NCBI GenBank assembly: GCA_014169315.1
Contig: AP022133.1
Location: 3,472,001 to 3,536,000 of the forward strand
Origin: Enterobacter cloacae
GTDB lineage: Bacteria; Pseudomonadota; Gammaproteobacteria; Enterobacterales; Enterobacteriaceae
Direction of reading: 5' to 3'
DNA: 64,000 nucleotides
In this document: one piece after another, positions 8,512 to 41,300 of the stretch
How the letters are laid out: every line of letters starts with the position of its first letter
How positions within the stretch are numbered: position 1 is the stretch's first letter
Notes under the pieces: generated by a model
What the model was told of the DNA's origin: nothing
Seen by the model: the letters and a program-made list of their open reading frames with translations, nothing else
Database searches by the model: none
Made by a program: the position numbers and the translations under genes

Positions 8512-9380
8512 GATTCAGAGAACACCGTAAGGGCGTCTTGTAACGCCGAAGTCGCAATTTCTCGCATGGAATGTGAAGTACTGCCAGAACGTACCTTTCC
8601 CATCGACTTGTTAACAACAACCATAATGTAGTCAAGCACTTGTGCTAATCGCTGTTGTATGACGCTAGGTACATATTTTAGCTTTTCAAAAACCCTTCCG
8701 AGTTCAAGTTGAACCCGGTTGTAAACATCGTACGCCACTGTGAATGCCATTACATTGGCAATCTGGTCATCCGCAAGATTGAAGATATCAGCAGTGGGAT
8801 CTACTTCATAAAGATGAGAGATGGCCTGATTCATTGCATGCTTGGCTGACTCTTCGTCAATACTTCCCCCCGTGGGCAGCAGCTTTTGTACAACTTCTAG
8901 AGCAGTATCATGGGCAGATAGATTTCTCTGTTTTACCGAAGCAACCCACGCATCGATATCAGGGTCAGTCCCATCTCGGGCTGTTGCCAGAAAGCCCCCT
9001 AATGAAGCAGAAGCTATAGCGCTAGTGCGCATACGGCTCGCCGCTTTTACTGAGCCGCCCATACCTTTTTTAATGAAACTCGAAATACCTCGCCGTAAAT
9101 CAGATCCACTACCAGATTGCACGAAACCCGTGAGAGCCCTTCGCGCTTCCTGATAACGACCCGCTGGCGCTGCGGCCGGACTTTCTACATGCTGCGGTGT
9201 AGTGTTGTCATTCTCCGAGTCACTGTCATTTGCACCATCAGAGCCATCTTCGGGAGCTGGATTTGGTGATATAGGTTTGTCTGCATGGCTAGAGTCAATG
9301 CCAGTTTCAGCATCATCTAGCCATGGTGGATCAAACGATGCGCCAGAACCGGCTCCTGAGCTTGAGGTCGAGGTACCCAT
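8508..9380 (-). CDS. qatB: QatB, defence system component
   Basis: 290-residue second gene of the qat operon. The N-terminus is low complexity (Ser/Gly/Asp/Asn/Pro, roughly residues 1-75, beginning MGTSTSSSGAGSGASFDPPW), followed by a helical domain with a Gly/Ser-rich hydrophobic stretch. No catalytic motif is recognised. The start codon directly abuts the qatA stop. The flexible Gly-containing N-terminus makes it a plausible substrate of the QueC-like partner, which is inference. Identified by position between the KAP ATPase and the QueC-like gene and by length. Confidence 0.88.
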   Translation of the reverse strand: MGTSTSSSGAGSGASFDPPWLDDAETGIDSSHADKPISPNPAPEDGSDGANDSDSENDNTTPQHVESPAAAPAGRYQEARRALTGFVQSGSGSDLRRGISSFIKKGMGGSVKAASRMRTSAIASASLGGFLATARDGTDPDIDAWVASVKQRNLSAHDTALEVVQKLLPTGGSIDEESAKHAMNQAISHLYEVDPTADIFNLADDQIANVMAFTVAYDVYNRVQLELGRVFEKLKYVPSVIQQRLAQVLDYIMVVVNKSMGKVRSGSTSHSMREIATSALQDALTVFSES

Positions 9381-13410: not shown

Positions 13411-14081
13411 TAGTTGTTATCTCCAAGCAGGCTTTGACCACACAGGATTTGGTAGTTTGGTTCATCTACGGCAACCTGTTTACTAATAAATTCATGAACG
13501 TTTCCAAGTGCTGAATCATTATTGGTCTTTGACCACATACGCCTAGCTCCCAGAATCAATAACCTTTCTTGAGCTCGCGAAATAGCAACATTTATTCGCG
13601 GCGCATCGCGCAGGAAACCTTGTAGTTTGTTGGGATTATCGCGGACCAGACTGAGGATAATTATCTTGTTCTCCTGACCCTGATATGAATCAACGGTATC
13701 GATCTTAATCAAACCACGTAACGATGCTGCCCATTCAGCCCGACTGATAGCATTATCAATTTCCTCTTTTTGCTGACGATACATTGTGATTATACCAATA
13801 GGATATGGCTGCTCTGTGGTAATAGTTTGCTCAAGCTGTGCAATGCAGTCATCGCTCGACAATGACTGCAAAGCCTCCAGCAGTAGCCTGACTTCTCGTT
13901 GATTGTAGTAACGGCCATTACCCTTATGCTCTTCTGCACCTGCTTCATTAGGGCTTGAACTATCGATCCAAGTAACAGTTTTGTTCCAAGGACTTGGTAG
14001 CTGGGAATACCAATCTGGCGAGACTTTCCTTGATGAATGCAGTTTACCGATATCTTGAGCGTAGAAGCACTCCGATACTAA
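13410..14081 (-). pseudogene. 3' part of IS-split NERD-kinase-helicase gene
   Basis: C-terminal 223 or so residues of the helicase interrupted by the IS5-family element. The frame is open from the CTAA duplication to the stop at 13410. It encodes the second RecA-like domain with superfamily 1 motif V (VDSYQGQENKIIILS) and motif VI (RINVAISRAQERLLILG). An internal ATG at 13871 could start a 153-residue fragment, but without motifs I-III this would not be a helicase. The junction with the 5' part is in frame when the IS and one target duplication are removed. Confidence 0.85.
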
Positions 14082-15278
14082 GGAAGCTGCGATTAAGTGG
14101 TCCGCAGCTCCCGATATGACGCCCCAAACCGTCCTTTATCGACGTCCTGTGGCTCAATTTTCCAATTTTCAGCCCAAAATCGTCTCTTCGTGGCTGATTT
14201 TGGCCCTGTTTCAGGCCAATTTCCTCATTTCAGGTAGATCTCGCCTGTGCCCGTATCAATTGGTCAACTCGAACCAGGTTCGCCAGGGTGAATAACATCG
14301 CCAGTTGACTGTCATTTTTAGCCAGCCCCTTGTACCTGGCTTTGACGAAACCAAACTGACATTTTACTATCCGAAATGGATGCTCAACCTTCGCTCGGAT
14401 ACTCGCTTTCAGGTATTCGTAACGGATGGCCAGCTTGTTCTTGCGCGGGTGTTGCTTCAATGCATTCACTTTGCCGGGACGCTTGGCGATAAGCCAGTCT
14501 GCGCTGACATCGCTGAGCTCATCGCGCTTTTCGGCCCCCTGATAACCAGCATCGGCTGAGATAAATTCTTCATCGCCATGCAGTAACTTGCCAACCTGAT
14601 TGAGGTCGTGCTCGTTAGCCGCCGTGGTCACCAGACTGTGGGTCAGGCCACTTTTGGCGTCCACGCCAATGTGCGCTTTCATGCCGAAGTACCACTGGTT
14701 ACCTTTCTTGGTCTGGTGCATGTCTTCATCACGGCTGTTGTGTTTGTTTTTGGTAGAGCTGGGGGCTTGAATGATGGTGGCATCCACCAAGGTGCCCTGG
14801 GTCATTAGAACGCCACACTCTGCTAGCCAGTGATTAACGGTACTGAAGATTTTGCGGGCCAGTTCATGCTGCTCCAGCAAATGCCGGAAATTCATGATGG
14901 TAGTGCGGTCTGGAATGGCTTTATCCAGTGACAGGCGAGCAAATTGGCGCATGGAGGCGATTTCATAGAGGGCATCTTCCATGGCCTCATCGCTCAGGTT
15001 GTACCATTGCTGCATGCAGTGAATACGCAGCATGGTTTCCAGCGGATAGGGCCTGCGACCATTACCGGCCTTGGGATACACAGGCTCGATAACGCCAAGT
15101 AATTTGTCCCAGGGAAGCAAGTCATCCATTCTGCCAAGGAAAACTTCTTTGCGGGTCTGGCGGCGTTTACTGGAAAACTCACTGTCGGCAAAAGTCAGTT
15201 GCTGGCTCATCCGGTTACTCATTCTGGGTTCAGGTTACAACACGATGATCTCACATCTCGGACTTATTCGCACCTTCC
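14082..15278. mobile_element. IS5-family insertion sequence (1197 bp)
   Basis: Terminal inverted repeats are visible: the left end begins GGAAGCTGCGATTAAGTGG, the right end, on the minus strand, GGAAGGTGCGAATAAGTCC. The element is flanked by the 4-bp direct repeat CTAA at 14078-14081 and 15279-15282, the target type of the IS5 group. Length and transposase match IS5 (about 1195 bp). It contains one transposase gene, oriented leftward like the gene it disrupts. Confidence 0.95.
14230..15222 (-). CDS. IS5-family transposase
   Basis: 330-residue DDE transposase close to E. coli IS5 Ins[20 protein letters not shown] at the N-terminus, the first Asp in GTLVDATII, the second in SADAGYQG and the Glu in [10 protein letters not shown]. 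Full length and without visible damage, so the element may still be mobile. A second start lies four codons downstream. Confidence 0.95.
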
Positions 15279-18200
15279 CTAACTCGCCAATTGGTTCTAC
15301 CATTCGATATTGAGTATCGAGTGTTACGCCGTCTGTTGCTTTAAAAGCACGTTCAAAATCAGACTCGTAAAAGATCCCTTTCCCGAGTTCTAACCTCTTA
15401 GAGGCTAACTTAAGATGCTGTTGATGATAGAATGGTGGCAATTGTTTATGATCCCCTACCAGTAATACTCGCTTGCCTGATTGCAGTGCTACCATCAATT
15501 CAGCAGCTTGTGCTCGGCCAGCCTCATCAACTATTACCCAATCAAAACTAGACTCAGCTAGCTCTAGTCGACGATTCCCAACACCAACAAGAGTTCCGCA
15601 AACCAATCGCTTACTTTTGAACATAAATCGATCAAACCCAGCCTCGCCGCCGCGTAATACATCCATCCACTCTTGGCTCATTTCCAATAGTTGCAGAAAA
15701 GGTTCAAGGTTCTCTGGATTGTTATAACTGCATTGTATGGCAATTTGCTCAGCCAACTGTCTTATCAAGGTCTCATCATAGACGAGAGTTTTCAGCAAGC
15801 TTTCATCGAATATTGAGTTAACAATTTCTTGTGTTCGCAGTTTAAGCTGATTGCTTTGTTCTAATAATTCAGTCAGTCGCTCTTGATGACTAATACTACT
15901 GCTCTTTGTCTGTTCTACTTTATCCAACTCACGGCTATATTGGCCATATGTCACCATCAAGGGATTCAGCGTACGATGTAACTGACATAACTGTTTGACT
16001 AATAATGGAGCCATGCCTAGGCGTTTTCCCAAGGAGCTAACTCGCAGGTCATATTCACGGTGAAATTTATGCTGAATCTGTCGCTGAAGAGCTTTAGTTG
16101 CAACACTTAGCATACCCTCATCAATCATAAGTTCATTACCAATACGTACTGTATCCAGTTCCATTCCTTTTGTATGGCAGAGCTCTCGAGCCTTAATGGC
16201 TACATTATCAACAGAAGCATGGGATTGGCCGACAAGAAGAATATTATTCACTCCGCAATGTTGATACAGATAGTGAATAAATTTTGAAATAAAGGTAGTT
16301 TTACCTGTTCCTGGCGGTCCCTGCAGAACTCCAACCGGTCCCAACTCGACCAACTGTTGAAACGCCATGAGCTGCTGTTCATTAAAACGTTGTCCAGGCT
16401 GATCATAAAGCTCGCGTAATGTCTCCGCGGATGGCCGCGGTTGCATTTGCTGCATACAGGGTTTCTGGTGGTAATCAAAATACTGTGGCAGATGCTGGAT
16501 CTCTGCTTTGTTTTCAATTACTCGTTGAAGGGCTCTTTGGCGCAACTCTCTTGATGATTTGTCACGGATCGACTCCAATAGTAGCTGGCTGCCGCTACTA
16601 ATTCGCTTACGAGCAGCATCGAAATCAAAGCGAATAGCCAATAGATTCGGCGTAGTTTCATTTAGCCGCAACTCCCCTAACTGCACTGATTCACGCTTAT
16701 CTTTAATATAAACAATGATCTTATCATCAAGTTCAAAGCTGAGGTCAGCACCGGATTCCGTTGTATATGGGTAGAGTAAGCAACCACTTGGTGATTCCTG
16801 AAAGTCAGTTGAATCGATGTTGACTATATCTCGTAGGTCTACTTCTGTGTCAGACAATGCCTGCCACAACTCAACCGGACTTGACTCACTACTATCGAAG
16901 TCATCTTCATCCATCTCTTGATTAGGATTAGCTCGCTCAATGATGGCGTCAATTACTGGCTCGAGATTAAACAGCAGTTCAATAAAAGTATTACGCTGAT
17001 TAAGTGAGCCACGCTGTAATGAAAGTTGAGTATTAATTTTAGCTTGGGAATATTTACCAGCCTTTATACTTTCTTCGATCGATAATCCTTTTTTATACAA
17101 TATTCTATTAATAGTGCGATTATCAGGATCCAGGTCTACCAATAGCCGCTCACCTAAACCAGTGATGTAACAACGCAATTCATGCGCAAAGCGTGGATTA
17201 GCTGACCAGTTACAGTGAAAATGATAGATGCCATCATTTTGTTCTAGAAGCTTCATTTCTTGCGGCCAATCATCTGTGCCCCAGCAAACAGGAATTACCT
17301 TATCCTGTAATTCAGACTCCACAACTTGCTTAATCTCAGCTTGTTCCGGGGCTCGAAGTGACTGCAGCAAAGGATCGAGCGCGATAGGTATACCGTCAAC
17401 GGTTTGCTTGGCACGTTCCAACTCAGCTTGAACCGGTACTGGCATATCTTCACTAAATAACTCCTCCACCATACGATATACGGCAAAGCAATCTCGCCCA
17501 AAAGCATCAGTGCTTTCAGGATTATCTGGCTGGTAACGATTATCTGCTGTTAATTCATCACTGAATTCAAGCAATCCAATCAGGGTAATTGCTGTCTGCT
17601 CCCCGGCTAGTACCAGCAGTTTCTCTGGGCAAAGATCTCCATGAGGTAACTGCTTTTCATGGAAAGCATGAATGGTGTTGATCAACGTCTCCGCTATTGT
17701 GAAACGTTGGGATTGTTCTAACACGTTCTCAGCAATAAACTGTGACCACGGTAGACCATCCACATACTCGCTCACTACATACAAGCCGCCTTGCCCTAAT
17801 AGCCCACAGGAATGCACCTTAGGAGTTGGCAGATTTATATGTGTAAGCTTATCGATTCGCTGCTTAAAAGCGTGGATACGGCGGTTAACACCAGGTTGCT
17901 GAGGATTCAGAATCACGCCATCCCACAACTTTACCTGCAGGGCTTTCCCACCTTGTTCACAGTGGTAACTGATGCTGCCTGTCGTAGCAATGGCAGCAAG
18001 CGCAGGGTAAACCATAGACAAATCTTCAGGAAGCGGAGGAAACTCAATTAACACACCAACGCTGTTCATCCCTTCGCGAAAGAATTTGTTTTGCTTTAAC
18101 TCTTGATAAATCTGGTTTGCTTCATCAAATTCTTGGCTATGTTCCTTAGTAGCCGCATTAAACTCATTGAGCATTATGTCTGCACGTGGAAAGCGTTTAC

Positions 18201-19569
18201 TTGGCTCAAGGTTAAGAGCTTGTTCAAACCAGCTATTTAAAATGCCGCTAAAAGGATCAGTTAATGGAGCTCGCCATTCAGGCATCTGTCCAGGAGTCAG
18301 TAACGATTCGCCTGCAAAACAAATACGATAAGCAATTACAGCCAACATGAATACATCTAGGCGATAGGGCTCAACTGCTTCTTCAAAAGCATCTTCGGGC
18401 AGAGTATATGGAGCACTTTGCAATGTCGGACGTAATGCCTCTAGGCTATTATGTCCCTCCAGCGAGGCTGCGCCAAAACCAGTAACGACAATGCTCTTTT
18501 GATCCCCTGCGTACCATAGATTGTGCGGGTCAATATCACAATGGCCTATACCTAGGCTATGTAATTCAGAGAATGGAGCCAATAATGCACGAACGCGATC
18601 AATACGATCAGACTTACTCCATCCGTCAGCTTCGCTATCTAGTATCTCATCCAATCGGCTAAAACTGCGGCGTAACTCATACAGCTCACGGGCATCATCA
18701 GTTACATCCTCGTCGGATAATTCCCTTACCGCACGCAACATATAATCCTGCATAGTTGCACTGCCATGACGAACCAAGCGACCGACTCGTGTTTCACGCA
18801 GAGCTATCTCAGACCATAATGTTTGCATTGCATTTGCTACACCCAGGGCATCAAAGTTCCACTGGCGTAGCAGGCCTCTATGTTGACTATTGTCTTTGTG
18901 GCTAGCCCTGAATTCGTGGTAGACCATGTGGGGATGACTAAAGAATGGCTTATCGCTCGCAAGATAACCGCTCTCTTTCAATGGTAAAGGCCTTACTTTT
19001 GGGCCTTCAAAGAAAGACTTAATGATCGGTAATGCCTCATCTGAATTTGGACGAGGCTTGCCCCCTTCAAATAGATAAGAAAAATTAGTCTCTTGCACCA
19101 GTTTTTCGTATTTTTTAGGATTGCCTATAGTCAAGAATTCATCGCGGGTATGAACATAGCGACTCTCACTTGGCGGCAAATTCTCAGGGCCTGCACTGCC
19201 ACACAGCACTACATGAGCCTCAACATGTAAAAAATAACCCAACTTACGAGAGAGCTCTTCCTGCAACAAATCCCTTAGCCGCTGTGCATGCTCGCGTTTG
19301 ATCTGATAGGGACTTTTGCCTCGTGGCTTACCATTTTGCAGCCACTTGCCCCCTTCACATGTGATGCTACCATTCCACTCTTTGAGCTCGACTAATAGCA
19401 GCCGGTCAGCAGTAATAATTAATGTATCGATTTCCATCGAGCCTTGGCTATCGGTAACAACCAAGCCAGCATAGCCAAACCAACTATCAGGTAACTGTTT
19501 GACCATCATATCAACTGTTTTGGTTTCACTACGGTGCAGGCCTGCACCACCTACTATCTGATACTTCAC
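15279..19569 (-). pseudogene. 5' part of IS-split NERD / kinase-like / SF1 helicase gene
   Basis: N-terminal 1430 residues of a protein that would have 1652. Order: a NERD nuclease-related domain (about residues 10-130, with IDTLIITADRLLLVELKEW), a kinase-like domain with HCDIDPHN near residue 343 but TGFG in place of DFG, a second kinase-like domain with HGDLCPEK near 643, then a UPF1/DNA2-like helicase with Walker A GPPGTGKT near 1085, Walker B VDEAG near 1346, GDHKQLPP, and DTQYRM near 1418. The IS cuts just after DTQYRM, so motifs V and VI are lost and the frame ends 14 codons into the IS. COG1112-type helicases fused to kinase domains occur in Mokosh defence, but no phospholipase D partner is seen, so this may be a different system. 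Confidence 0.88.
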
Positions 19570-24521: not shown

Positions 24522-24998
24522 ATGAAACAGCTTTCCTTTTTACCCGGCGAGATAACGCCACAGGACCGGCGTCTCATCCAGCGTGCCCTCAGAGTTCTGG
24601 ACAGGCATCTGCATGAGCCCGGGGTGGCCTTCACCTCCACACATGCTGTCCGTGAATGGCTGCGACTGCATATGGCCGCGCTTGAGCGGGAAGAGTTCCG
24701 GGTGCTGTATCTGGATAATCAGAACCAGCTTATCGCCCATGAGACGCTCTTTAGTGGCACGATTAACCGCACCGAGGTCCATCCCCGGGAAGTGGTCAAA
24801 CGTGCTCTGTACTTCAACGCGGCGGCGGTGATACTGGCGCATAACCATCCTTCCGGCGAGACGATGCCCAGCCAGGCTGACAAAGCCCTCACGCAGCGAC
24901 TGGTTCAGGTACTTCAACTGGTGGATATCCGTGTCCCTGACCATCTGATTGTCGGCGGCAGACAAATCTATTCGTTCGCAGAACACGGTCTGCTGTGA
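24522..24998 (+). CDS. yfjY: RadC-like JAB-domain protein
   Basis: 158-residue short RadC/YfjY/YkfG family protein with a JAB/MPN metal site: Glu in the N-terminal half, then HNHPSGETMPSQAD. Lacks the helix-hairpin-helix of full RadC. 15 bp downstream of the antirestriction gene with a GGAGG site; likely operonic. Function in DNA metabolism is presumed but unproven for this family. Confidence 0.9.
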   Translation: MKQLSFLPGEITPQDRRLIQRALRVLDRHLHEPGVAFTSTHAVREWLRLHMAALEREEFRVLYLDNQNQLIAHETLFSGTINRTEVHPREVVKRALYFNAAAVILAHNHPSGETMPSQADKALTQRLVQVLQLVDIRVPDHLIVGGRQIYSFAEHGLL

Positions 24999-25006
24999 GG
25001 TATTAC

Positions 25007-25228
25007 ATGAAAATTATCAGTAAACGCCGGGCAATGACGATATACCGCCAGCATCCTGAGTCCCGAATCTTTCGTTACTGCACCGGCAAATACCAGTGGC
25101 ACGGTAGCGTCTGCCATTACACCGGCAGGGAAGTTCCGGATATCACAGGAGTCCTGGCGGTATACGCCGAACGCCGCCAGGACCGCGAGGGACCGTATGC
25201 TTGCCTGATGAGTATTACCCTGAACTGA
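25007..25228 (+). CDS. ypjJ: DUF987 (YpjJ/YeeT-like) protein
   Basis: 73-residue DUF987 protein (MKIISKRRAMTIYRQHPESR, CTGKYQWHG, GREVPDITGVLAVYAERR), very like E. coli YeeT. Start at 25007 gives good spacing to GTGAGG; an upstream GTG overlapping the yfjY stop is less likely. Regularly located between RadC-like and CbeA-type genes. Confidence 0.9.
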   Translation: MKIISKRRAMTIYRQHPESRIFRYCTGKYQWHGSVCHYTGREVPDITGVLAVYAERRQDREGPYACLMSITLN

Positions 25229-25246
25229 CGATAAAGGAGATTATAA

Positions 25247-25564
25247 ATGAGCAACATCACATGGGGCCTGCAGCGGGATATCACGCCGCGCCTGGGAGCA
25301 CGTCTGGTGCAGGAGGGCAACCGGCTGCATTATCTGGCTGACCGGGCCAGTATCACAGGTAAATTCAGTGACGCCGAATGCCAGAAGCTGGATGTGGCAT
25401 TTCCACACTTTATCAGCCAGATGGAGTCCATGCTGATTACCGGTGAACTTAATCCCCGACACGCCCACTGCGTCATTCTGTACCATAACGATTTTACCTG
25501 CGAAGCCGACACTCTTGGCAGTTGCGGCTACGTATACATCGCCATTTACCCCACTCAGCGCTAA
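25247..25564 (+). CDS. yfjZ: YfjZ/CbeA-type antitoxin
   Basis: 105-residue antitoxin of the YeeU/YfjZ/YafW family: [30 protein letters not shown] and the FPHFI segment. In characterised homologues it counteracts the toxin indirectly by stabilising MreB/FtsZ polymers (type IV). AAGGAG precedes the ATG. Followed after 20 bp by its cognate toxin. Confidence 0.93.
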
Positions 25565-25584
25565 TTACCTTCACGAGAGCAAAC

Positions 25585-25914
25585 ATGAAACCTCAACCTG
25601 CAACAACTTCGCGGGCGGCGAAGCCATGCCTGTCACCTGTGGCTGTCTGGCAAATGCTGCTGACCCGACTGCTCGAAAAACACTATGGCCTGACGCTAAA
25701 CGACACCCCGTTCAGTGATGAAACCGTGATTCAGGAACACATTGATGCCGCTATCACGCTGGCTGATGCCGTTAATTTTCTGGTGGAGAAATACGAACTG
25801 GTACGTATCGATCGCAGAGGATTTTCGTGGCTACAACAGACTCCCTATATTTCCGTAGTAGATATTCTGCGAGCAAGGCGCTCTACCGGATTGCTAAAAG
25901 CTAACGTGAAATAA
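25585..25914 (+). CDS. ypjF: YpjF/CbtA-type toxin
   Basis: 109-residue member of the YeeV/YkfI/YpjF toxin family, which inhibits FtsZ and MreB assembly. Conserved core [37 protein letters not shown] and [11 protein letters not shown]. Start at the ATG following ACGAGAG; a longer frame from 25522 overlaps the antitoxin and lacks the family's N-terminus. Slightly shorter than CbtA (124 residues), lacking the last dozen residues, as in some family members. Confidence 0.92.
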
Positions 25915-26090: not shown

Positions 26091-26196
26091 CCAATTCAGA
26101 CTCCGCCAGCCCACCAAAATTCTCCATCGGTGATTACCAGAGTCATCCGATGAAGTCCTAAGAGCCCGTACGGCGCAAGCCCTACGGGCTTTTTTG
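26091..26196 (+). other. Putative attR: partial copy of the ssrA 3' end
   Basis: The stretch starting TTCAGACTCCGCCAG then CCCACCAAAATTCTCC resembles the T-arm and acceptor end of enterobacterial tmRNA (…CTCCCGCCAGCTCCACCA) and the sequence that normally follows ssrA, including its terminator. It lies just after the last CP4-57-like gene and just before a second integrase, as expected for a right attachment site shared by tandem elements. The comparison is from memory, so identity is approximate. The cognate attL (ssrA itself) would lie left of the window. Confidence 0.68.
26163..26195 (+). terminator. ssrA-type terminator in the attachment region
   Basis: Arms AGCCCGTA and TACGGGCT with an inner GGC-GCAA-GCC stem and a T-run. 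Looks like the tmRNA terminator duplicated with the attachment site. Confidence 0.8.
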
Positions 26197-26236
26197 TGCC
26201 TGTCGTTGTCCGAGAACATCCGGCTGAATCCAGAGA

Positions 26237-26294
26237 GAATTGGTACACGTTTAGGTATACGGTAGGATGTATGCCTAAAAGCGTATACCAATTC
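26237..26294. promoter_or_regulatory. Nested inverted repeats at the second integrase promoter
   Basis: Outer arms GAATTGGTA (26237-26245) and TACCAATTC (26286-26294) enclose inner arms TTTAGGTATAC (26250-26260) and GTATGCCTAAA (26269-26279). The inner end is 18 bp from the GTG start. The position suggests an operator or integrase arm-type binding site for autoregulation; function inferred. Confidence 0.6.
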
Positions 26295-26311
26295 CTGAAG
26301 GAGCGACCATC

Positions 26312-27524
26312 GTGGTACGGACAATACGCCCCCTGACAACACCGCAGTTCTGCACGCTAAAGTGTTAGAGAAGGATCTAACGCTACATGATGGCAATGGG
26401 CTTTTCCTGATAGTGAAAACCAGCGGGAAAATCTCTGGCGTTTCCGTTATCAACGTCCGGTAACAAAGCAGCGGACATTGATGGGGCTCGGTGCATTCCC
26501 CGCCCTTTCGCTTGCTGATGCCCGAGGGTTAAGAGCTGATTACCTTGCCTTATTAGCCAACGGAATCGACCCACAAATTCAAGCTGAAGTTGCAGAGGAA
26601 CAGCAGCAAATCGCTCTGGACAGCATTTTTTCGACGGTGACCGCTAACTGGTTTCAGCTCAAAAGCAAAAGCGTTACACCTGATTACGCAAAAGACATTT
26701 GGCGCTCACTGGAGAAAGATGTATTCCCTGCCATCGGTGAGATCCCTGTTCAGCAAATCAAAGCCCGTACCCTGGTTGAAGCTCTTGAGCCAATCAAAGC
26801 TCGTGGGGCGCTTGAGACTGTACGTCGACTGGTGCAGCGTATTAATGAGATAATGATTTATGCCGTAAACACTGGTCTGATTGATGCGAATCCAGCATCA
26901 GGTGTTGGGATGGCCTTTGAGAAACCCAAAAAACAAAACATGCCGACGCTGCGGCCAGAAGAATTGCCGAAACTGATGCGTTCTTTAATCATGTCAAATC
27001 TGTCTGTCCCGACGCGCTGTCTCATTGAATGGCAGCTCCTGACTCTTGTGCGCCCTTCTGAAGCCTCCGGTACTCGGTGGGCAGAGATCGATTTCGAAAC
27101 AAAGCTCTGGACAATTCCAGCCGAACGGATGAAGGCTAAGCGGGAGCATATAGTTCCTCTATCTCTTCAGGCATTAGAGATTCTTGATGTGATAAAGCCT
27201 ATCAGTGCTCATCGTGAACATGTTTTTCCGAGTCGGAATGACCCAAAGCAACCAATGAATAGCCAGACAGAAAATGCTGCTTTAAAAAGAATTGGATATG
27301 GGGGTAAATTAGTAGCACATGGTTTGCGCTCAATAGCGAGTACTGCAATGAATGAAGCTGGTTTGAATTCAGATGTGATTGAAGCAGCACTCGCTCATAG
27401 TGACAAAAATGAAGTTAGGAGAGCCTACAACCGTACAACATATTTGAATCAAAGAAAGGAAATAATGAGTTGGTGGGGAGGTTCTATATACTCCTTATCA
27501 TTTATAAAAAAGGGTATGTCATGA
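26312..27524 (+). pseudogene. P4-type integrase with frameshifted N-terminus
   Basis: A GTG with GAAGGAG begins a typical P4 integrase N-terminus (VRTIRPLT), but single-base losses are implied near 26335 (between RPLT and VLHAKVLEKDL) and near 26442 (between VKTSGK and LWRFRYQRP). After the second, the frame is open to 27524. Starting at TTG 26478, 348 residues could still be made, with LVRPSEA, HGLRSIAST and AYNRTTY catalytic motifs but without the N-terminal DUF4102 arm-binding domain. The C-terminus after SWWG is replaced by a short unrelated tail. Probably inactive, and close in sequence to the integrase at the window start. Confidence 0.82.
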
Positions 27525-28768
27525 GTAAATTCCAAAAAATAGACTTAGCATATGACTTCTTAATTGAAAAAGAAAAACAAGGCGCAACCTTTAAATTGTC
27601 GGAGCTATCAGAAGCCAGCACATGGTCTTTGAAAACATGTTCAACACATATTTCAAAGAAGCTTAGCTCCTATTTCCAGAGGGAAGGAGACGACTATATA
27701 ACTAATGGTCTTTTATTCTTAAGTAAAAACGACTTCAGAACAGCCCTAAGCCAGATATCATCTCTAACCAATAATTACTCAAGAAAAGGAATTCTTTTAA
27801 ATAAAGCTAAAGAGTTTGCGATACTCGCGGTTTCCACTTACAACAACCCGACTATAAAATTCAAAACATATGGGTTTATAATCAACATGAATATAGCATT
27901 CACATCACTTTTTCATGCTATATTTGAAAAAAACGAGGTCGACTATTATCACAAAGATGGTGCAGGGAATACAATTTTCATCGATGGAGAAGAAAAAGCA
28001 TGGGAATTAAAAGAATGCACAGAAAAATATTGGTTTGGGGTCAACTCACCAATTAAATCTAACCTTCACTTTCTTATAGGCCTAAGAAACAAAATCGAGC
28101 ATCGCTTTCTTCCTGTCATAGACTTAATGTGTAGCGGAGAATGTCAAGCAGCATTAACTAACTTTGAAAACATTATAACTAAAGAATTTGGTGATGAGCA
28201 TGCATTATTAGTAAACCTTGCTGTAGCCATGCAACTTAGTCGGGTATCTTCAGAGGCCAAAATAGAAGCATTAAAACAATTCCAATCACAGAATTACACC
28301 GTAGTTAGGGAGTTCATGGAAGCACAACAACATGAATTAAGTGCAGAAGCATTAGAGAGCCAAGAGTACCGCATTAAAGCTTTTTTAATTCCAAAGATAG
28401 GAAATCATGCCTCATCATCAGATCTATCTATTGAATTTGTTAATTTTAGAAAACTAAGCGATGAAGAAAAAGCACAGTATGAACAGGGCATAACATTTAT
28501 AAAAGAAGTACGAAGCCCTTATATTCACAAGCCATCAGATATTGTTTCAAAAGTAAAGGAAACTCATAACTTCTTCAATATGGCTTTACACACAAAGTGC
28601 TGGAAGTTCTTCGATGCTAGGCCAGTGGAAATGAATAATGACTACAAAGGAATATATTCAGGTTTTGTCTTAGGCTTCAACAATTATCTTTACTCTAACG
28701 ATTGGGTATCATTTTTAAATGAACAACTTAGTAACAATGACACCCTACAACGCATCCGCATCTCCTGA
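27521..28768 (+). CDS. DUF3644 protein with HEPN RNase motif
   Basis: 415 residues. The start at 27521 is chosen because AAAGGGT precedes it; the ATG overlaps the integrase stop (ATGA). The N-terminus (about residues 8-60, FLIEKEKQGATFKLSELSE...) reads as a winged helix. DUF3644 follows, with RNKIEH at residues 189-194, an Rx4H signature of HEPN ribonucleases. The C-terminal half is helical with no recognised domain. AT-rich compared with flanking genes. The kinase gene follows after 11 bp, so the pair is an operon. Likely an abortive-infection RNase toxin; the DUF3644 call is fairly sure and the RNase activity is inferred. Confidence 0.8.
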   Translation: MSKFQKIDLAYDFLIEKEKQGATFKLSELSEASTWSLKTCSTHISKKLSSYFQREGDDYITNGLLFLSKNDFRTALSQISSLTNNYSRKGILLNKAKEFAILAVSTYNNPTIKFKTYGFIINMNIAFTSLFHAIFEKNEVDYYHKDGAGNTIFIDGEEKAWELKECTEKYWFGVNSPIKSNLHFLIGLRNKIEHRFLPVIDLMCSGECQAALTNFENIITKEFGDEHALLVNLAVAMQLSRVSSEAKIEALKQFQSQNYTVVREFMEAQQHELSAEALESQEYRIKAFLIPKIGNHASSSDLSIEFVNFRKLSDEEKAQYEQGITFIKEVRSPYIHKPSDIVSKVKETHNFFNMALHTKCWKFFDARPVEMNNDYKGIYSGFVLGFNNYLYSNDWVSFLNEQLSNNDTLQRIRIS

Positions 28769-28779
28769 AGGAAATATAT

Positions 28780-29880
28780 ATGGCAAATTTTTTTCGTTTA
28801 GACAGGGATTGGGGATTCTTACAAGCTTTAGATAAGATAAACTCTCATTACAAGCCCGGAGGAATGGTCTCCGGAATGGCTAGGAATGTTCAGATACAAA
28901 ATTGGGGAGTTCTTGTTGGAAGAACTCGTGCACTTGCTGAAGTTGAATTAGCGATATCCCTTGCGGGGTCAAAATCTAAACTATGTAGGATAATACAAAT
29001 ATCAGACTCATCCCTTAATATGATGATTGATTTTTTCGAGAGTCTACCTAATGATATTAATAAGCAGGGAATCCAACAGGGAACATCCATATCCGGACAT
29101 TTATTACTTCGCCAGATTGGGAAAGGTGGGAATGCAGTAGTATGGAAAACAAGAACAACAAATAACAATCTGCATATAATGAAAATTGCTAAACGTAGTA
29201 AAGGAATAGCATTATCACGCTTTGATGATGAAATATCCACATTAAATAGAATCAAAGCCATAAGGGACAAGAACCTTCACACAATCCCTATCATTAATAG
29301 TTATAGCAACTTGGACGATGATGGTTTTGCTTGGTTTACAATGCCAGAAGCCACCCCTCTGGAAAAACATTTTGAAAAACACGCATCCACACCTCTAACC
29401 ATATTAAAAGGCATGCTGGATGTCTGTAAGACAATTGAAATACTTCACGCCCAAGACATTTACCATCGAGATATAAAACCAGATAACATACTTATCTATC
29501 AACATAAGTGGTCTCTTGGTGATTTTGGCATTGCCACTTTCCCCGATAAAGAAAAAATCACTAAAGAAGGTACCAAAATGGGTTCCCTGCATTACTACGC
29601 ACCAGAAATGTTAAGCAGTTCTCAAGAAAATTCTGGTATGTATGCTGACATATACAGCTATGCAAAGTCATTATGGGCCTTATTAAGCGGAAATAAGTAT
29701 CCCATTGCTGGGGAACTTAGATTAGACCGTCCAGAGGCAAAGTTATCTACTTACTGCATGTTGGATAAAATAGAGTTACTGGATGAAGTCATATCAGCTT
29801 GTACAAGCTATACACCAACAAACAGACCTTCAATATCAGAGATAAGAGCTGTAATTGAAAAGGTCATAGAAAATAAATAA
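28780..29880 (+). CDS. Serine/threonine protein kinase
   Basis: 366-residue Hanks-type kinase with a complete catalytic core: glycine loop IGKGGNAVVWK (about 113-123), ATP-binding Lys135 in MKIAK, HRDIKPDN at 229-236, DFG at 248-250, GSLHYYAPE and DIYSYA. The N-terminal 110 residues are unlike any domain I know and may sense or bind the DUF3644 partner. No transmembrane or PASTA region, so cytoplasmic. GAAGGAAAT precedes the ATG. Cotranscribed with the HEPN gene; probably activates or restrains it by phosphorylation. Confidence 0.88.
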   Translation: MANFFRLDRDWGFLQALDKINSHYKPGGMVSGMARNVQIQNWGVLVGRTRALAEVELAISLAGSKSKLCRIIQISDSSLNMMIDFFESLPNDINKQGIQQGTSISGHLLLRQIGKGGNAVVWKTRTTNNNLHIMKIAKRSKGIALSRFDDEISTLNRIKAIRDKNLHTIPIINSYSNLDDDGFAWFTMPEATPLEKHFEKHASTPLTILKGMLDVCKTIEILHAQDIYHRDIKPDNILIYQHKWSLGDFGIATFPDKEKITKEGTKMGSLHYYAPEMLSSSQENSGMYADIYSYAKSLWALLSGNKYPIAGELRLDRPEAKLSTYCMLDKIELLDEVISACTSYTPTNRPSISEIRAVIEKVIENK

Positions 29881-30091
29881 CACATCAGCTCTGCGCACAA
29901 TGCTCTCCCCGCCCCGCCTGCCCGCTTAATGGGGCGCTTTGAATGCAGGTGCATGGGCGACCTCAGGCCGCGCCAGAACTGGCGCTGGCGGGGGAGGCAG
30001 GGACATGAAAACGTATGCAAAACCATGCACCTTATGTATGCATGGCTTAATTCAGGGAAAATGGCGGGATTTACGGGGATTTTTTGACGGG

Positions 30092-30544
30092 CTACTGCGC
30101 GGCCAGTTCAGCGCGTTTTCGGACGTAATTCTGGTTTTGTGCAGGCGTGAATTTTTCACGATTATCATCCCGTGAAACCGCGTCAGGCCTGAACCCAATG
30201 GCCGTTAAAATGTCATTATCCTGTGCGGAATAATTTATTTTTCCACCGGTGGCCAGCCACACCGACAGCGCTTCACGCAGGTAGTCCACCGAATGCTGCA
30301 TTACGCAGTGTTTTACAGCGGGATGCTGGTTGTTATAGCCCATTAGTTCGGGGGCAAGTGAGGCGGTCAGCTCTGCGCCGTGCGCCTGCATAAAATCATT
30401 CAGGCGGTTGAGGATGCTGATGCGCTGCACGTCCTCATGCGAGCTAATATAGCGACCGGCAGCCTGATTAATTTCCCATTTTTTACGTCGATAATATTGT
30501 AAGCACCCTGTTTTACTTCCACGCACTTTTTTGAGTACTTCCAC
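30092..30544 (-). CDS. Hypothetical 150-residue mobile-element protein
   Basis: Not recognised. GTG start at 30544, directly after the stop of a small upstream frame. Basic N-terminus (KKVRGSKTG...YYRRKKWE) and a helical remainder with MQHSVDYLREALSVWL. No signal peptide. Found in what looks like prophage or satellite debris between the kinase gene and the backbone; a regulatory role is possible but not supported. Confidence 0.6.
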   Translation of the reverse strand: MEVLKKVRGSKTGCLQYYRRKKWEINQAAGRYISSHEDVQRISILNRLNDFMQAHGAELTASLAPELMGYNNQHPAVKHCVMQHSVDYLREALSVWLATGGKINYSAQDNDILTAIGFRPDAVSRDDNREKFTPAQNQNYVRKRAELAAQ

Positions 30545-30547
30545 ATT

Positions 30548-30652
30548 TTAAGCCATCATCAGGCACTCATCCGACACCGGGTTATCCAGAAGTCCCTGCA
30601 ACCGCTTACTGCGACATACAACCCGCAGATTTCCCCTCGTGATATTGTCCAT
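30548..30652 (-). CDS. Possible 34-residue peptide
   Basis: Short frame (MDNITRGNLRVVCRSKRLQG...) that ends just before the 150-residue gene and overlaps the end of the next one. No convincing ribosome binding site; it could also be the tail of a decayed gene. Kept because it directly abuts the downstream GTG, as coupled small genes do. Confidence 0.25.
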   Translation of the reverse strand: MDNITRGNLRVVCRSKRLQGLLDNPVSDECLMMA

Positions 30653-31139
30653 AAAAAGGAGCATCGAGCGTTGGAATATAAGGCCAGTCAACTTCGCTTT
30701 TTATGATATTTCGCGCAGCCATTGCTTCTTGCTCGGTTAAAAACATCCCTGAAAGATTGTTGTCAGCATCAATAGCAAAAAACGTAATCTCTGAGTCACA
30801 AAGTTGAGCGTTAACAATAACGAAGAGAGAATATGTTGCTCTTGCCCAACTTTCCTCTTCAGAACCAGGGACTTCTGCAGAATATATAGTGAACTCCTCT
30901 CCATTACACGACACTTTGTATTCTGGGATTTCAGAATCAATATACTCATAAATCTGAGCGGGATTGCGGATATGTTTTTTTAACTCAGGCAGCAAGCGTT
31001 GATAAGCCCCGGCAATCCCTTCTTCAGCCAATGTCTCAGCATCCAGAAAAATCAGGTCATCATAGTTCAAAGGACTTTCAGTGTCTTTGACATTGTCCTT
31101 TCGAAATGTTGGCAGCATTTTCAGCAATCCAGAAAACAT
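30606..31139 (-). CDS. Hypothetical acidic 177-residue protein
   Basis: Not recognised. Acidic, soluble, with ILxx-type helices and a central beta-rich segment (YKVSCNGEEFTIYSAEV...SLFVIVNAQLCDSEITFFAID). Composition and size resemble immunity proteins of contact-dependent or type VI toxins, but no toxin gene is nearby. Lower GC than the backbone. Last gene before the backbone-like DNA. Confidence 0.6.
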   Translation of the reverse strand: MFSGLLKMLPTFRKDNVKDTESPLNYDDLIFLDAETLAEEGIAGAYQRLLPELKKHIRNPAQIYEYIDSEIPEYKVSCNGEEFTIYSAEVPGSEEESWARATYSLFVIVNAQLCDSEITFFAIDADNNLSGMFLTEQEAMAARNIIKSEVDWPYIPTLDAPFYGQYHEGKSAGCMSQ

Positions 31140-35382: not shown

Positions 35383-38300
35383 ATGAGCCAAATATCTGTT
35401 ATCTCAAAACTGACTGGCGTGAAAACGACCACGGAAGGGACTCAGGTCTCGCTGAATCATTCCTCTATCGTTAAGCTTCACCTGGAGCGCGCCGATATTC
35501 AGCATTTTGCCAGAAATAACAACGATCTGGTGCTCACCCTGCATTCTGGTGAAACCATCGTCATCAAGAATTTCTACGTCACGGATGCACAGGGTCTTAG
35601 TCAGCTGGTACTGGAAGATGACAACGGCGCATTGTGGTGGATTGAAGACCCCACTGCAGCAGCCGCGCATTATGAATCCATTGCCTCAACGGACGTTTTG
35701 CTGGCCGCTGCAGGCGGTGAATCAACCACCGGTGGTGCAATCTGGCCCTGGGTTCTGGGCGGCGTTGCGGCAGCCGGAGGCATAGCGCTGGCTGCCGGTG
35801 GCGGTGGCGGTGGCGGTGGCGGTGGCAGTGGCAGTGGCAGTGGCAGTGGCAGTGGACATAGCAACAGCGGAAGTAGCGACCCGGCGGATCCCGCAGACCC
35901 TCCGTCCCCGGATAAAACAGCTCCCGTTGCACCTGCTATTTCCGGCGTAACGGACAATGTCGGTACAGTCCAGGGCGCACTCACCAGTGGTCAAAGCACC
36001 GATGACTCCCGACCAACCTTTAGCGGAACAGCAGAGGCCGGATCAACGGTAACGGTTTACGACAACGGGACAGCCATCGGTAGCGTAGCGGCAGGCAGTG
36101 ACGGCAAATGGAGTTTTACCCCGTCGACAGATTTAAGCGAAGGTACACATAACATCACCACCCAAGCCACCGACGCTGCCGGGAACACTGGCCCGGGCTC
36201 TTCTTCATTTGCCGTGGTTGTGGACACCACACCGCCGGACACACCCACGCTCCTGAACGCAACTGAGCGCAACGGTGCGACGGCGACACAAATTCAGAGC
36301 GGTCACTATACCCATACCGGTACACCTGAGATTTCCGGAAAAGGTGAGCCTGGCGATACCATCACCCTCTACGATCAAGGGGTGAAAATTGGCGAAGCCA
36401 ACGTCGATAGTAACGGAAACTGGCATTTTACCCCCGGTTCCACACTGACCGAAGGTACACACTCCCTGACGATCACGGAAACCGATCCGGCCGGGAACAC
36501 CAGCGGCATCTCCAGACCACTGGACTTTATTGTTGATAACACGCCCCCGGGCGCGCCAACCGATCTCGCCATCACCCCCGACGGCGGCGCGCTGACCGGT
36601 AAAGCCGAAGCGGGCAGTACTATCATCGTCAGCAACGGCACCACCATTGTTGGTACGGCGGTGACGGACGCCCAGGGCAATTTCACGGTACCGCTCAACC
36701 CTGCCCAGCTGAATGGTGAAACCCTTTCAGTCACCGCCACCGATGCCGCAAGTAACACCAGCCCGCCCGCCAGTCTGACGGCTCCGGATACCACACCTCC
36801 GGCCATTCCGACGGGGGTTGTGGTCAATCACGATGGCGATCATGTTACCGGGAAAGCAGAACCTGGCAGTACCGTCACCGTGAAAAATGAGCAAGGCACC
36901 CTCATCGGTACAGGTCAGGCAGATGGCAGCGGTAATTTCGATGTTACCCTCTCACCACCGCAGAAAAACGGTGAAGTGCTGGACGTGACGGCTACCGACG
37001 GTGCGAACAATACCAGCCAGCCCGCGCTGGCTATCGCCCCGGACACCACTGCACCAGGCGCACCAACCGATCTTGCCATCACCGCCGACGGCAGCACGCT
37101 GACCGGTAAAGCCGAAGCCGGTAGCAGCATCATCATCAGCAACGGCACGACCACTGTTGGCACGGCGGTGACGGACGCTCAGGGCAATTTCACGGTGCAA
37201 CTGCACCCCGCCCAGCTTAATGGTGAAACCCTTTCAGCGACCGCCACCGATGCCGCAAGCAACACCAGCCCACCCGCCAGCCTGACGGCTCCGGATACCA
37301 CGCCTCCGGCCATTCCAACAAATGTCGTGGTCAACCACGATGGTGATCATGTCACCGGGAAAGCAGAGCCTGGCAGTACCGTCACCGTGAAGGACGAGCA
37401 AGGCTCCATCATTGGCACTGGTCAGGCAGATGGCAGCGGTCATTTCGATGTCACCCTCTCAACGCCACAGAAAAACGGCGAAGTGCTGGACGTGACGGCC
37501 ACCGACGGCGCGAGCAATACCAGCCAGCCCGCGCTGGCTATCGCCCCGGATACCACCGCACCGGGCGCACCAACCAATCTCGCCATCACCGTCGACGGCG
37601 GTACGCTGACCGGTAAAGCCGAAGCCGGTAGCACCATCACCATCAGCAACGGCACCACCGTTGTCGGCACGGCGGTGACGAACGATCAGGGTAATTTCAC
37701 GGTTACGCTCACCCCATCCCAGCGCAATGGCGAAACCCTTTCCGCCACCGCTACCGATGAGGCCGGGAATACCAGCACGCCAGGAACCCTACTCGCGCCA
37801 GACACCACGCCGGCGCAAACACCTGAAATTCTGGGTGTTGTTGATAATGTGGCCGACTTTACCGGCAATATCAGCAACGGTGGCCTGACGAACGACAACC
37901 ACCCAACGATTTACGGCAAAGGTGAAGCGGGTACTACGCTCAGTCTTTACAGCAACAACACGCTGATAGGCACGGTGGTGATCCAGCCAGATGGCAGCTG
38001 GTCATTCCCGGCAAACGCACCACTGTCTGAAGGCGGGAACGTTATTACCGCACAGGCGGTGGATGGGAAAGGTCAGGCAAGTAGCATTTCTGCGGCCTGG
38101 AATGTCACTGTCGATACCACCCTCCCCGATACCCCCGTACTGAAAAATGTGCTGGATGATGTTGCAGAAAATACCGGCCCCATCACCAGCGGCCAGGTGA
38201 CCAACGACAGCACCCCAACCTTTAGCGGTACTGGCGAAGCGGGGGCGACCCTCAACGTCATGGAGGGGGGGAACGTCATTGGTACGGCAAATATCGACGC

Positions 38301-41300
38301 GAATGGCGTCTGGACATGGACGCCTGCCAGCGGGCTGAGCAACGGCACACACAACCTGACGTTTGTCGCCGTGGATGCAGCCGGTAACCATAGCAACCCG
38401 ACCTCTGTCTTCCAGGTGAATCTCTCCACCACCGCACCTGGGGTCCCGACCATTGATTCGGTTACCGATGACGTTGGCAGCACTCAGGGCACGGTGACCA
38501 GCGGTAAGCCAACCGATGACAACCGGCCTCTGCTGGAGGGCACAACCACTGCAGGCAATACCATTGCCATTTATGATGGTAATACGCTGCTGGGCAATGC
38601 CACCGTCGATCTTTCCGGACACTGGAGCTTCACGCCAGGCATCCCGTTAGCCGATGGCACGCACAACATCACTGCCGTTGCCATTAACGCTGCGGGCAAT
38701 ACCGCCACCTCCGCTCCTTTTGTCGTGGAAGTCGACACCGTTGCCCCAGCAGCCCCGTCAACACCGGTAGTCACCGTCAACCCGGACGGTGTGGACGTCA
38801 TTCTGTCTCCAGGACAACCCACGCGGGATACCACCCCAACGCTTAGCGGCAGCGGTAATGTGGGTGATGTGATCACCATTTATAACGGTAGCACTCCGCT
38901 GGGTACCACAACGGTAGATGGCACGGGTCACTGGAGCTGGACGCCTAATCCTCCACTGCCTAACGGCACCTACGACATCAGTCTTACAGCCACGGACAAA
39001 GATGGTGCGGGCAACGAAAGCGCCGCGTCGCAGGCTGCAACCATTATCATTGATACCAGTGCGCCAGCCACACCTGCGGCTCCGGTGGTCACCGACAACG
39101 TGGATGCCCACACCGGCCCGGTCAGCAACAACGGCTCAACAAACGACGGCCGCCCGGTATTAAGCGGTTCCGGTGAACCCGGTGCGGTGATCACCCTGTA
39201 TGACAACGTCAATGGCACCAAAAGTGTGCTGGGCAGCGTAACGGTCGACCCGACCGGTCACTGGAGTTTCCAGCCATCCACTGCGCTAAGCCAGGGCAAC
39301 CACACCTTCAGCACCACGGCGAAGGATGAAGCAGGCAACATCAGTACAGAAAGCCCAACCATCACCGTTAATGTGGATACCGTTGCACCAGATCAGCCTT
39401 CCGGGCTGAGCATCAACGGACAAGGCACCATCCTCTCAGGGACGGCGGAAGCAGGCTCTACCGTGGAAGTACGTGATGCCAGCAACACGCTGATTGGCAC
39501 CGGAACTGCGGATGTTAATAACCACTTCACTGTCACGCTCTCTTCACCACAGGCGTCAGGAAATAACCTGAGTATCACCGCCGAAGATAGCGCCGGAAAT
39601 ACCAGTAACGCGACGTCCTGGACGGTGACGGGTACCGTGCAGCCACCGGTGATTGATGCCATTCTCGATGATGTGGGGCTGATTCAGGGGAACGTTAAAG
39701 GCGGCATCTCTGACGATCCCCTCCCGACCATCAGCGGCACGGCTCAGGCAGGCAGTACGGTTAACCTCTACCAGGATGGCATACTCCTGACGACCATCAC
39801 GCTGCTGCCAGGTGAAACCAACTGGAGTTTCCAGCTCATCGTGCCGCTGACTCCGCTGGCGCACAGTTTTACCGCCACCGCCACGCTGGGGGCGAACACC
39901 AGTGCCTCCTCCGACCAGGCGAGTGTCACCATCAACCTTTTGACCCCAGGTACGCCGGTGATCGGCGCGGTGACGGATGATGTGGCTCCATATACCGGCC
40001 CGCTGACAAACGGCCAGACCACCAACGACAACACGCCAACCCTGAGCGGCACAGCCGGTGCGAATAACACCGTCACCATCTATGATGGACTGACGAAACT
40101 TGCCGACGTGGTCGCCGGTGCTGACGGTAAATGGAGCTATACCCCAGGCGCACTCTCTGACGGAAGCCATAGCCTGACGATTACCGTCACCGATATCACT
40201 AACATCCCCAGCGTACCGTCTGAAGCGTTCGTGGTGGTGGTGGATACCACCCCGCCCGCGAAGCCTGGTATTGATACCGTTACAGACGATGTCCCACTGC
40301 TGACCGGAAACGTAGACAAAAATACCGCCACAAACGACACCACACCGACCCTTTCAGGCCACGCCGAAGCGGGCAGTACCGTATCCATTCGCGATAATGG
40401 CGTTGAGATAGGGACAGTGACGGCAGGCGCTGGCGGTACCTGGACCTTTACACCGACAAAAGCGCTGAATGACGGCACACATGATTTCACGGTAGTTGCC
40501 ACCGATAGCGTCGGTAATCAAAGTGTCGTTTCGGATGACTACAGCGTGACCGTTGCCACCACACCACCGGCACAGCCAACGCTGGATACCGTGTATGACG
40601 ATCTCCCGTCCGGTACGGGGAACCTGACCAACGGCCAGCTCACTAACGACAGCACGCCGACGCTCAACGGTACAGGGGTTAACGGTACCACCATCCATAT
40701 TCTGGATAATGGCTCACCCGTTGGCACTGCGATTGTCACGAACGGAACCTGGAGCTTTACACCCACAGTACCGCTTGGCGAGGGTGTACATAACCTGCGC
40801 GTCTACGCCAGCGATAACGCGGGCAATACTTCAACAACCACGCCAGCCTTTGCCATAACTGTTGATGCAACCCCACCGGCTAACCCGGTGGTTACTGGCG
40901 TGCTGGATGATGTTGGCCCGGTAACCGGGCAAATCGGCGCGGGGGGAACCACCAACGACAGCAAACCAACCCTCAGTGGTACGGGCGAAGCAGGCACCAC
41001 CATCCACATTACCGATGGGGGTACGGAGATAGGCACCGCCGTCGTGACGGCCGGTGGCACCTGGACATTCACCCCGGCCACAGCGCTGTCAGAAGGTACG
41101 CATAATCTGGTGATTTCGGCCACCGATCCGGCCGGAAACAGCAGCCTCGTCAACCCGACGCTCACGTTTACCGTTGATACGGTCGCGCCGGTGGCTCCGC
41201 TTGTTATCTCCGTTGCCGACGATGTGGGCACGAAGCAAACGCCACTCAGCAGCGGGCAATCCACGGATGACACCACGCCATCCTTTACCGGGTCAACCGA

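What the first reader, a model, noticed from the sequence alone, without database searches (positions are those of the whole stretch)
27521..29880. HEPN (DUF3644) protein and Ser/Thr kinase as a compact uncharacterised module
An Rx4H motif (RNKIEH) within DUF3644, with an N-terminal winged helix, sits 11 bp before an intact Hanks kinase with a novel 110-residue N-terminus. Both are AT-rich and in an island next to an integrase. A kinase controlling a HEPN RNase would be an attractive infection-triggered switch; I know of no described system of exactly these two genes.
Basis: partly seen in the sequence, partly recalled or inferred. Interest (0 to 1): 0.78.

Follow-up and report, generated by a model that had tools for sequence, protein, structure and literature searches.

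The report
Satellite-borne RNase-plus-kinase candidate defence pair
Two adjacent genes in the remains of a virus parasite (a P4-type satellite) encode a probable RNA-cutting toxin and a protein kinase, probably an anti-phage system whose kinase part can also be found beside a different, nuclease-like protein.

Summary
ORF 27521-28768 (415 aa) is a winged helix plus HEPN (DUF3644) protein; 11 bp later lies an intact Hanks kinase (28780-29880, 366 aa). They are the whole cargo of a degraded P4-type satellite: P4 homology stops at 27478 in the integrase and resumes at 29893 beside psu. That is the published P4 anti-phage hotspot, and the same window carries QatABCD and Mokosh genes.
The kinase N-terminus is not unique. 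It is homologous to an N-terminal extension on 11 of the 120 listed DUF3644 relatives (best E 4e-29), which links the two proteins. Pairing is not general: none of 11 other DUF3644 loci read had this kinase, and the kinase turned up in 1 of 392 family genomes. In 7 of 5,426 E. coli genomes a kinase of the same family sits beside a different protein with PD-(D/E)XK-like motifs.
Best reading: a two-gene anti-phage module with a HEPN RNase effector and a regulatory kinase that can take other nuclease partners (0.5). Main rival: two independent defence genes sharing a hotspot (0.3). No activity, trigger or phosphorylation has been shown. New variant of a known kind.

The parts
26146..27478 (+). 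P4-type (ssrA-type) integrase region, 86% identical to a P4 satellite of E. coli MB20; reading frame broken near 26427 (coding pieces 26329-26430 and 26427-27479)
   Evidence: ORF 26478-27524 matches PF00589 1.2e-31
27479..29892 (+). Cargo: the stretch between the two P4-homologous flanks, holding just the two genes
   Evidence: blastn of L001 against the window
27521..28768 (+). DUF3644/HEPN protein, 415 aa; its ATG overlaps the integrase-frame stop by 4 bp (ATGA)
   Evidence: (PDC-S19 7.7e-94)
27521..27757 (+). Winged helix of the HEPN protein (residues 1-79)
27776..28198 (+). HEPN domain (about residues 86-226)
28085..28102 (+). Rx4H motif R189-N-K-I-E-H194
   Evidence: R189 and H194 in 120 of 120 listed relatives
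28767..28772 (+). GAAGGA, Shine-Dalgarno-like sequence of the kinase, overlapping the HEPN stop codon
   Evidence: sequence printed; reading as a ribosome site is inference
28780..29880 (+). Kinase with N-terminal helical domain, 366 aa
28780..29055 (+). N-terminal domain (about residues 1-92, five predicted helices), homologous to the N-terminal extension of the 487-532 aa DUF3644 proteins
29107..29844 (+). Hanks-type kinase domain (residues 110-355) with K135, E151, H229-R-D231, D248-F-G, A274-P-E
29893..30495 (.). P4 homology resumes (82% to E. coli MB20), from 13 bp after the kinase stop to the broken start of psu
30095..30484 (-). psu (polarity suppression), lacking the first ~57 residues
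   Evidence: (PF07455 3.9e-63)

Best explanation
A two-gene anti-phage module carried as cargo by a P4-type satellite, now a remnant in the chromosome. The first gene makes a HEPN-fold RNase with a winged helix in front (fold and active-site motif supported here; RNase activity inferred). The second makes a Hanks kinase with intact catalytic motifs whose N-terminal helical domain is the same domain that other DUF3644 proteins carry on their own N-terminus (homology shown). Proposed mechanism: the N-terminal domain is the docking or trigger-sensing part; on infection it brings the kinase to, or switches on, the partner nuclease, which then cuts RNA and stops phage growth, perhaps by abortive infection. 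Because the other DUF3644 loci read lack this kinase, the kinase is more likely an activator or licensing factor than an obligatory antitoxin. In E. coli a related kinase would do the same job for another nuclease-like protein. Every functional step is inferred.
For: Site: cargo lies exactly between integrase and psu of a P4-type element, the site where Rousset et al. 2022 (PMC9122126, passages read) found diverse anti-phage systems; QatABCD and Mokosh genes are in the same window. HEPN; DUF3644 is listed as a HEPN family by Anantharaman et al. 2013 (PMC3710099, passages read). Kinase motifs intact. One unit: 11 bp gap, ribosome-site-like sequence overlapping the HEPN stop, HEPN start overlapping the integrase-frame stop. 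Link: an HMM of kinase N-termini finds 11 of 120 listed DUF3644 proteins at E 4e-29 to 2e-15, the next best being 0.27. Pair probably kept elsewhere: P0003 (86% HEPN) and P0122 (78% kinase) both list a longest contig of 3,765 bases. Partner change: E. coli L096/L097.
Against: None of 11 other DUF3644 loci read has this kinase; kinase in 1 of 392 family genomes, N-domain in 1 of 398 phylum genomes. No direct sign that the kinase acts on the HEPN protein. The P0003/P0122 adjacency rests on equal contig length only; those contigs were not read. A close HEPN cluster (P0005, 81%, 100 member sequences) has no kinase cluster of like size at 75-80% identity. The element is degraded (broken integrase, truncated psu), so this copy need not be active. 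The HEPN model is of middling quality (mean pLDDT 72, pTM 0.44).
Confidence: 0.5

Rival explanations
1. Two independent defence genes that happen to share a P4 hotspot: a solo HEPN (DUF3644, PADLOC candidate PDC-S19) and a solo kinase of the PD-T4-6/Stk2 sort.
For: DUF3644 occurs without the kinase in P2-type hotspots (L098-L100), beside an integrase (L119) and elsewhere: 0 of 11 other loci with the kinase. The kinase is found beside an unrelated protein in E. coli, whose relatives also occur without it: 0 of 7 places read.
Against: The kinase's N-domain is also fused to DUF3644 proteins; the cargo is just these two genes with an 11 bp gap; both kinase contexts read have it second, behind a nuclease-like gene.
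Confidence: 0.3
2. Toxin-antitoxin pair: the kinase holds the HEPN RNase inactive by phosphorylating it, as MntA is recalled to do to HepT by AMPylation, and infection lifts the block.
For: HEPN toxins with a modifying partner are known (MntA-HepT and AMPylated HEPN rows among the best fold matches); toxin-first order and the tight gap fit. The winged helix of this clade is more diverged (mean 43% identity to the other DUF3644 proteins, against 61% among those) than its HEPN domain (65% against 69%); the C-terminal part lies between (48% against 59%).
Against: The other DUF3644 loci read lack this kinase, so such proteins are not generally lethal without it. The residue two after H194 is F196, not the tyrosine that I recall as the target in HepT.
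Confidence: 0.12
3. The kinase is itself the main effector (phosphorylating host or phage proteins, as Stk2 is recalled to do) and the neighbouring nuclease-like protein is a sensor or accessory.
For: Kinase-domain profile matches to MADS6, PD-T4-6 and Stk2 defence kinases; partner differs while the kinase stays.
Against: Both partners look like catalytic nucleases (R189/H194 in 120 of 120 listed relatives; E14, D52, D66 and K67 in 8 of 8 aligned P0217 relatives) and occur without the kinase.
Confidence: 0.08

Closest known systems
DUF3644 (PF12358) HEPN family; PADLOC candidate PDC-S19
   Same: Domain, Rx4H motif, placement in phage and satellite cargo sites
   Different: PDC-S19 models cover the DUF3644 protein only (residues 92-411); here a kinase follows. 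The winged helix of this clade is unusually diverged.
P4 satellite psu-int anti-phage hotspot (Rousset et al. 2022, PMC9122126)
   Same: Cargo lies between int and psu; many different cargo systems are known there, some with HEPN (passages)
   Different: This element is a remnant. In the passages seen no HEPN-kinase pair is mentioned; the supplementary tables were not open to me.
E. coli H10-type cargo: P0217 + kinase P0218 (L096, L097)
   Same: Same kinase family with the same N-domain, same hotspot, kinase as second gene
   Different: First gene is an unrelated 495-aa protein with PD-(D/E)XK-like invariants, not DUF3644
Single-gene defence kinases PD-T4-6 and Stk2
   Same: Hanks kinase domain
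   Different: In the 25 of 33 rows shown, those profiles match the kinase part only (from residue 99 on); the N-domain is unmatched
MntA-HepT (MNT-HEPN) toxin-antitoxin systems
   Same: HEPN fold with a modifying enzyme next door
   Different: Partner is a protein kinase, not a nucleotidyltransferase

Membership tests
HEPN superfamily / DUF3644 | Match to the curated DUF3644 model | tested here: met
   158 bits against a cut-off of 27.6
HEPN superfamily / DUF3644 | R-x4-6-H motif kept across the family | tested here: met
   R189 and H194 in 120 of 120 listed relatives, the best of 2,001 hits
HEPN superfamily / DUF3644 | HEPN helical fold | tested here: met
HEPN superfamily / DUF3644 | RNase activity, dimer | not testable with these tools
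   needs protein
Hanks-type Ser/Thr kinase | Catalytic residues (K, E, HRD, N, DFG, APE) | tested here: met
   K135, E151, H229-R-D231, N236, D248-F-G, A274-P-E
Hanks-type Ser/Thr kinase | Kinase activity and Ser/Thr preference | not testable with these tools
   needs protein
P4-type satellite | P4-type integrase and psu flanking the cargo | tested here: met
   both present but damaged
P4-type satellite | Complete core (delta, sid, alpha and others) | tested here: inconclusive
   blastn of the satellite regions L001 and L096 found no homology in the window beyond 30499; whole genome not searched for the rest
PDC-S19 (PADLOC) | Profile match | tested here: met
   7.7e-94, residues 92-411; a defence role is not shown by this
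PD-T4-6 / Stk2 solo kinase | Whole-protein architecture | tested here: not met
   matches limited to the kinase domain in the rows shown; residues 1-98 unmatched
MNT-HEPN toxin-antitoxin | Nucleotidyltransferase partner | tested here: not met
   partner is a protein kinase
MNT-HEPN toxin-antitoxin | Tyrosine two residues after the motif histidine (definition recalled) | tested here: not met
   F196 in the sequence

The most novel reading that the evidence does not exclude
A modular immune system of phage satellites in which one recognition domain is either fused to a HEPN RNase or mounted on a kinase that works with interchangeable nucleases (HEPN here, a PD-(D/E)XK-like protein in E. coli): a bacterial parallel to Ire1/RNase L, where a kinase and a HEPN-type RNase are coupled.
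Probability: 0.25. Interest if true: 0.75.

Novelty: new variant of a known kind. Interest (0 to 1): 0.5.

Why it matters
If true, a kinase-controlled HEPN nuclease would be a bacterial counterpart of the kinase-RNase couplings of Ire1 and RNase L (Anantharaman et al. 2013, passages read, place the KEN RNase in the HEPN superfamily). The shared N-terminal domain gives a concrete handle: it can be tested whether it is the sensor, and whether swapping the nuclease changes the outcome but not the trigger. Even if the kinase and HEPN prove independent, a widespread HEPN family for which I found no experimental paper gains placement in a P4 hotspot (window) and in the P2 hotspot (three contigs).

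Tried and rejected
General HEPN-kinase system: rejected. 0 of 11 other DUF3644 loci had the kinase (L002, L098-L101, L103-L105, L107, L108, L123). Limits: five of them are only about 4 kb, of which three were re-read at 12-14 kb with the same result (L117-L119); of 27 plasmid and 6 phage records with a DUF3644 match I read one each.

N-domain without relatives: rejected. N-domain of known fold: no convincing PDB sequence match (best E 0.017 over part of a nodulation protein); a weak Pfam YdaS hint on the E. coli kinase (E 0.17) is not significant.

Wider search for N-domain proteins: P0083 residues 1-95 found only itself and P0089 among 29 candidates, although 11 such fusions were already known, so that search is insensitive and its emptiness means little. 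A3 in viral contigs: 7 pattern matches, none confirmed; in 398 phylum genomes: own genome only.

HEPN as a single query in viral contigs: none. Foldseek of the HEPN model in PDB and BFVD: nothing at E <= 0.001. P0217 against PDB sequences: none. Rfam over 25-32 kb: none. Promoter-like sites: 13 found, 10.6 expected, so no evidence. Genus of G296: 0 of 4.

Fission or fusion history: in the FastTree of 120 DUF3644 proteins plus the window's, the 11 fusions form one clade (support 0.445) apart from the window clade (support 1.0); in the N-domain tree the 15 kinase N-domains group (0.82), and with four HEPN N-domains (0.93, midpoint root). Resolution is too low for more.

Full report
WHAT IS THERE. 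ORFs 27521-28768 and 28780-29880 lie as described, 11 bp apart on the + strand. The first protein matches DUF3644 (2.5e-46) and the second a protein kinase (1.7e-25). PADLOC places the first in its candidate family PDC-S19 (7.7e-94); for the second it lists 33 profiles, of which the 25 shown (MADS6, PD-T4-6, MkoA, Stk2 among them) match the kinase part only. The kinase ribosome-site-like GAAGGA overlaps the HEPN stop codon, and the HEPN ATG overlaps the stop of the integrase frame by 4 bp.

KINASE. The catalytic motifs are present. The N-terminal ~92 residues are five predicted helices. In the alignment of DUF3644 relatives, some of 487-532 aa showed an N-terminal extension that resembled it. 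An HMM built only from kinase N-termini found 11 of the 120 listed DUF3644 proteins at E 4e-29 to 2e-15; the next best was 0.27. Of 14 listed proteins longer than 440 aa, 11 carry it and 3 (P0025, P0056, P0061) do not. Invariant positions over a 13-sequence mixed alignment (8 kinases, 5 HEPN fusions) include W11, N21, G27, G32, R35, N36, I39, W42, G47 and A51. This shared domain is the main new point: it ties the kinase to the HEPN family by fusion evidence.

SETTING. The flanks are a P4-type satellite remnant. Homology to the satellite of E. coli MB20 runs from 26146 to 27478 (86%), stops, and resumes at 29893 up to 30495 (82%). The cargo between is just these two genes. The integrase frame is broken near 26427 and psu lacks its first ~57 residues. 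Rousset et al. 2022 (PMC9122126, passages read) describe this psu-int site, and the gpA-gpQ site of P2-like phages, as anti-phage hotspots. DUF3644 relatives lie in the gpA-gpQ stretch of contigs L098-L100, in L098 beside a reverse-transcriptase gene (naming genes and retron there is by similarity to recalled families and by eye). The window also holds QatABCD genes (6524-11255) and Mokosh MkoA and MkoB.

HOW GENERAL IS THE PAIR. Among 392 genomes of the family the kinase was found in 1 (own; E <= 1e-60) and the HEPN protein in 4, own included (E <= 1e-30). A DUF3644 profile rang in 3 of 369 class genomes, own included. No kinase of this kind was found in 11 other DUF3644 loci (for ten of them). 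In the protein collection, P0003 (86% HEPN) and P0122 (78% kinase) give the same longest contig length, 3,765 bases, so a diverged copy of the pair probably exists; I could not read that contig. Against this, P0005 (81% HEPN) has 100 member sequences and 13 contigs, while the kinase clusters at 75-80% identity hold 7, 3 and 1 (P0122, P0123, P0134); larger kinase clusters exist only at 54-60% (P0125 with 119, P0127 with 124) or 97% (P0121 with 26). So even close HEPN relatives may lack the kinase.

A DIFFERENT PARTNER. In 7 of 5,426 E. coli genomes there is a kinase of this family; the two loci read (L096, L097) have it, with the N-domain, as second gene of a P4 cargo whose first gene is a 495-aa protein (P0217) without a significant Pfam or any PADLOC match. 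The same seven records hold P0217 at >= 99% identity next to it by coordinates. Eight relatives aligned share E14, D52, D66 and K67, which resembles a PD-(D/E)XK nuclease site (inference). P0217 relatives occur without the kinase: 0 of 7 other places read had it (G296, G057, G379, G035, G355, L121, L122; the G035 and G355 stretches are only 2.9 and 4.2 kb), and L122 is a satellite-like element on a Klebsiella plasmid.

MECHANISM. Shown: folds or motifs, gene order, site, shared domain, partner difference. Inferred: RNase activity, kinase activity, defence, and any action of one on the other. I favour the N-domain as docking or sensing part and the kinase as activator of a partner nuclease, because both partner families occur without the kinase and so do not seem to need it as an antitoxin. 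The window's HEPN clade (window plus P0001-P0006) has a winged helix unusually far from 19 other DUF3644 proteins (43% mean identity, against 61% among those); the C-terminal part is also further (48% against 59%), the HEPN domain hardly (65% against 69%). This could mark changed regulation, but it is not known how many of that clade have the kinase.

PRINT STATUS. 'DUF3644' occurs in one held paper, 'PDC-S19' in none; searches combining HEPN, kinase and phage-defence terms (listings and abstracts' starts seen) showed no description of this pair. Passages of DefensePredictor (PMC13092281), Vassallo et al. 2022 (PMC9519451) and the Tha paper (PMC11087260) mention other HEPN systems.

Noticed in passing
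window 6524-11255 (-): QatABCD defence genes: QatA 1.4e-116, QatB 8.3e-34, QatC 4.3e-92, QatD 7.3e-68.
   Followed up: partly
window 11863-19569 (-): Mokosh genes MkoB (11863-13410, 1.8e-63) and MkoA (15235-19569, E 0) with a DDE transposase gene (14230-15222) between them.
   Followed up: partly
window 2-952 (+): A second P4-type integrase, 67% identical in protein to the MB20 one, at the very start of the window: two satellite-type integrases about 26 kb apart.
   Followed up: no
window 24522-25914 (+): RadC-like gene and CbeA antitoxin, followed by a frame that looks like the CbtA toxin (recognised by eye, not tested).
   Followed up: no
window 35383-45924 (+): 3,513-aa repetitive ORF that looks like a giant Ig-repeat adhesin (by eye), followed by three large ORFs to 50764 that may be its exporter (not tested).
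   Followed up: no
window 30606-31139 (-): 177-aa ORF beside truncated psu with no significant Pfam, NCBIfam or PADLOC match.
   Followed up: no
L098:5703-9248: Phage contig whose gpA-gpQ stretch holds a 317-aa gene, a reverse-transcriptase-like gene and a DUF3644 gene side by side (RT named by eye).
   Followed up: partly
L122:4998-6470: P0217-family gene (annotated as SEC-C protein) between a replication-type gene and capsid genes on a Klebsiella plasmid; 142 plasmid records hold relatives of P0217.
   Followed up: partly
L119:5330-8608: Integrase, DUF3644 and a 239-aa ORF of unknown family in a row in another family genome: a possible different partner of DUF3644.
   Followed up: no
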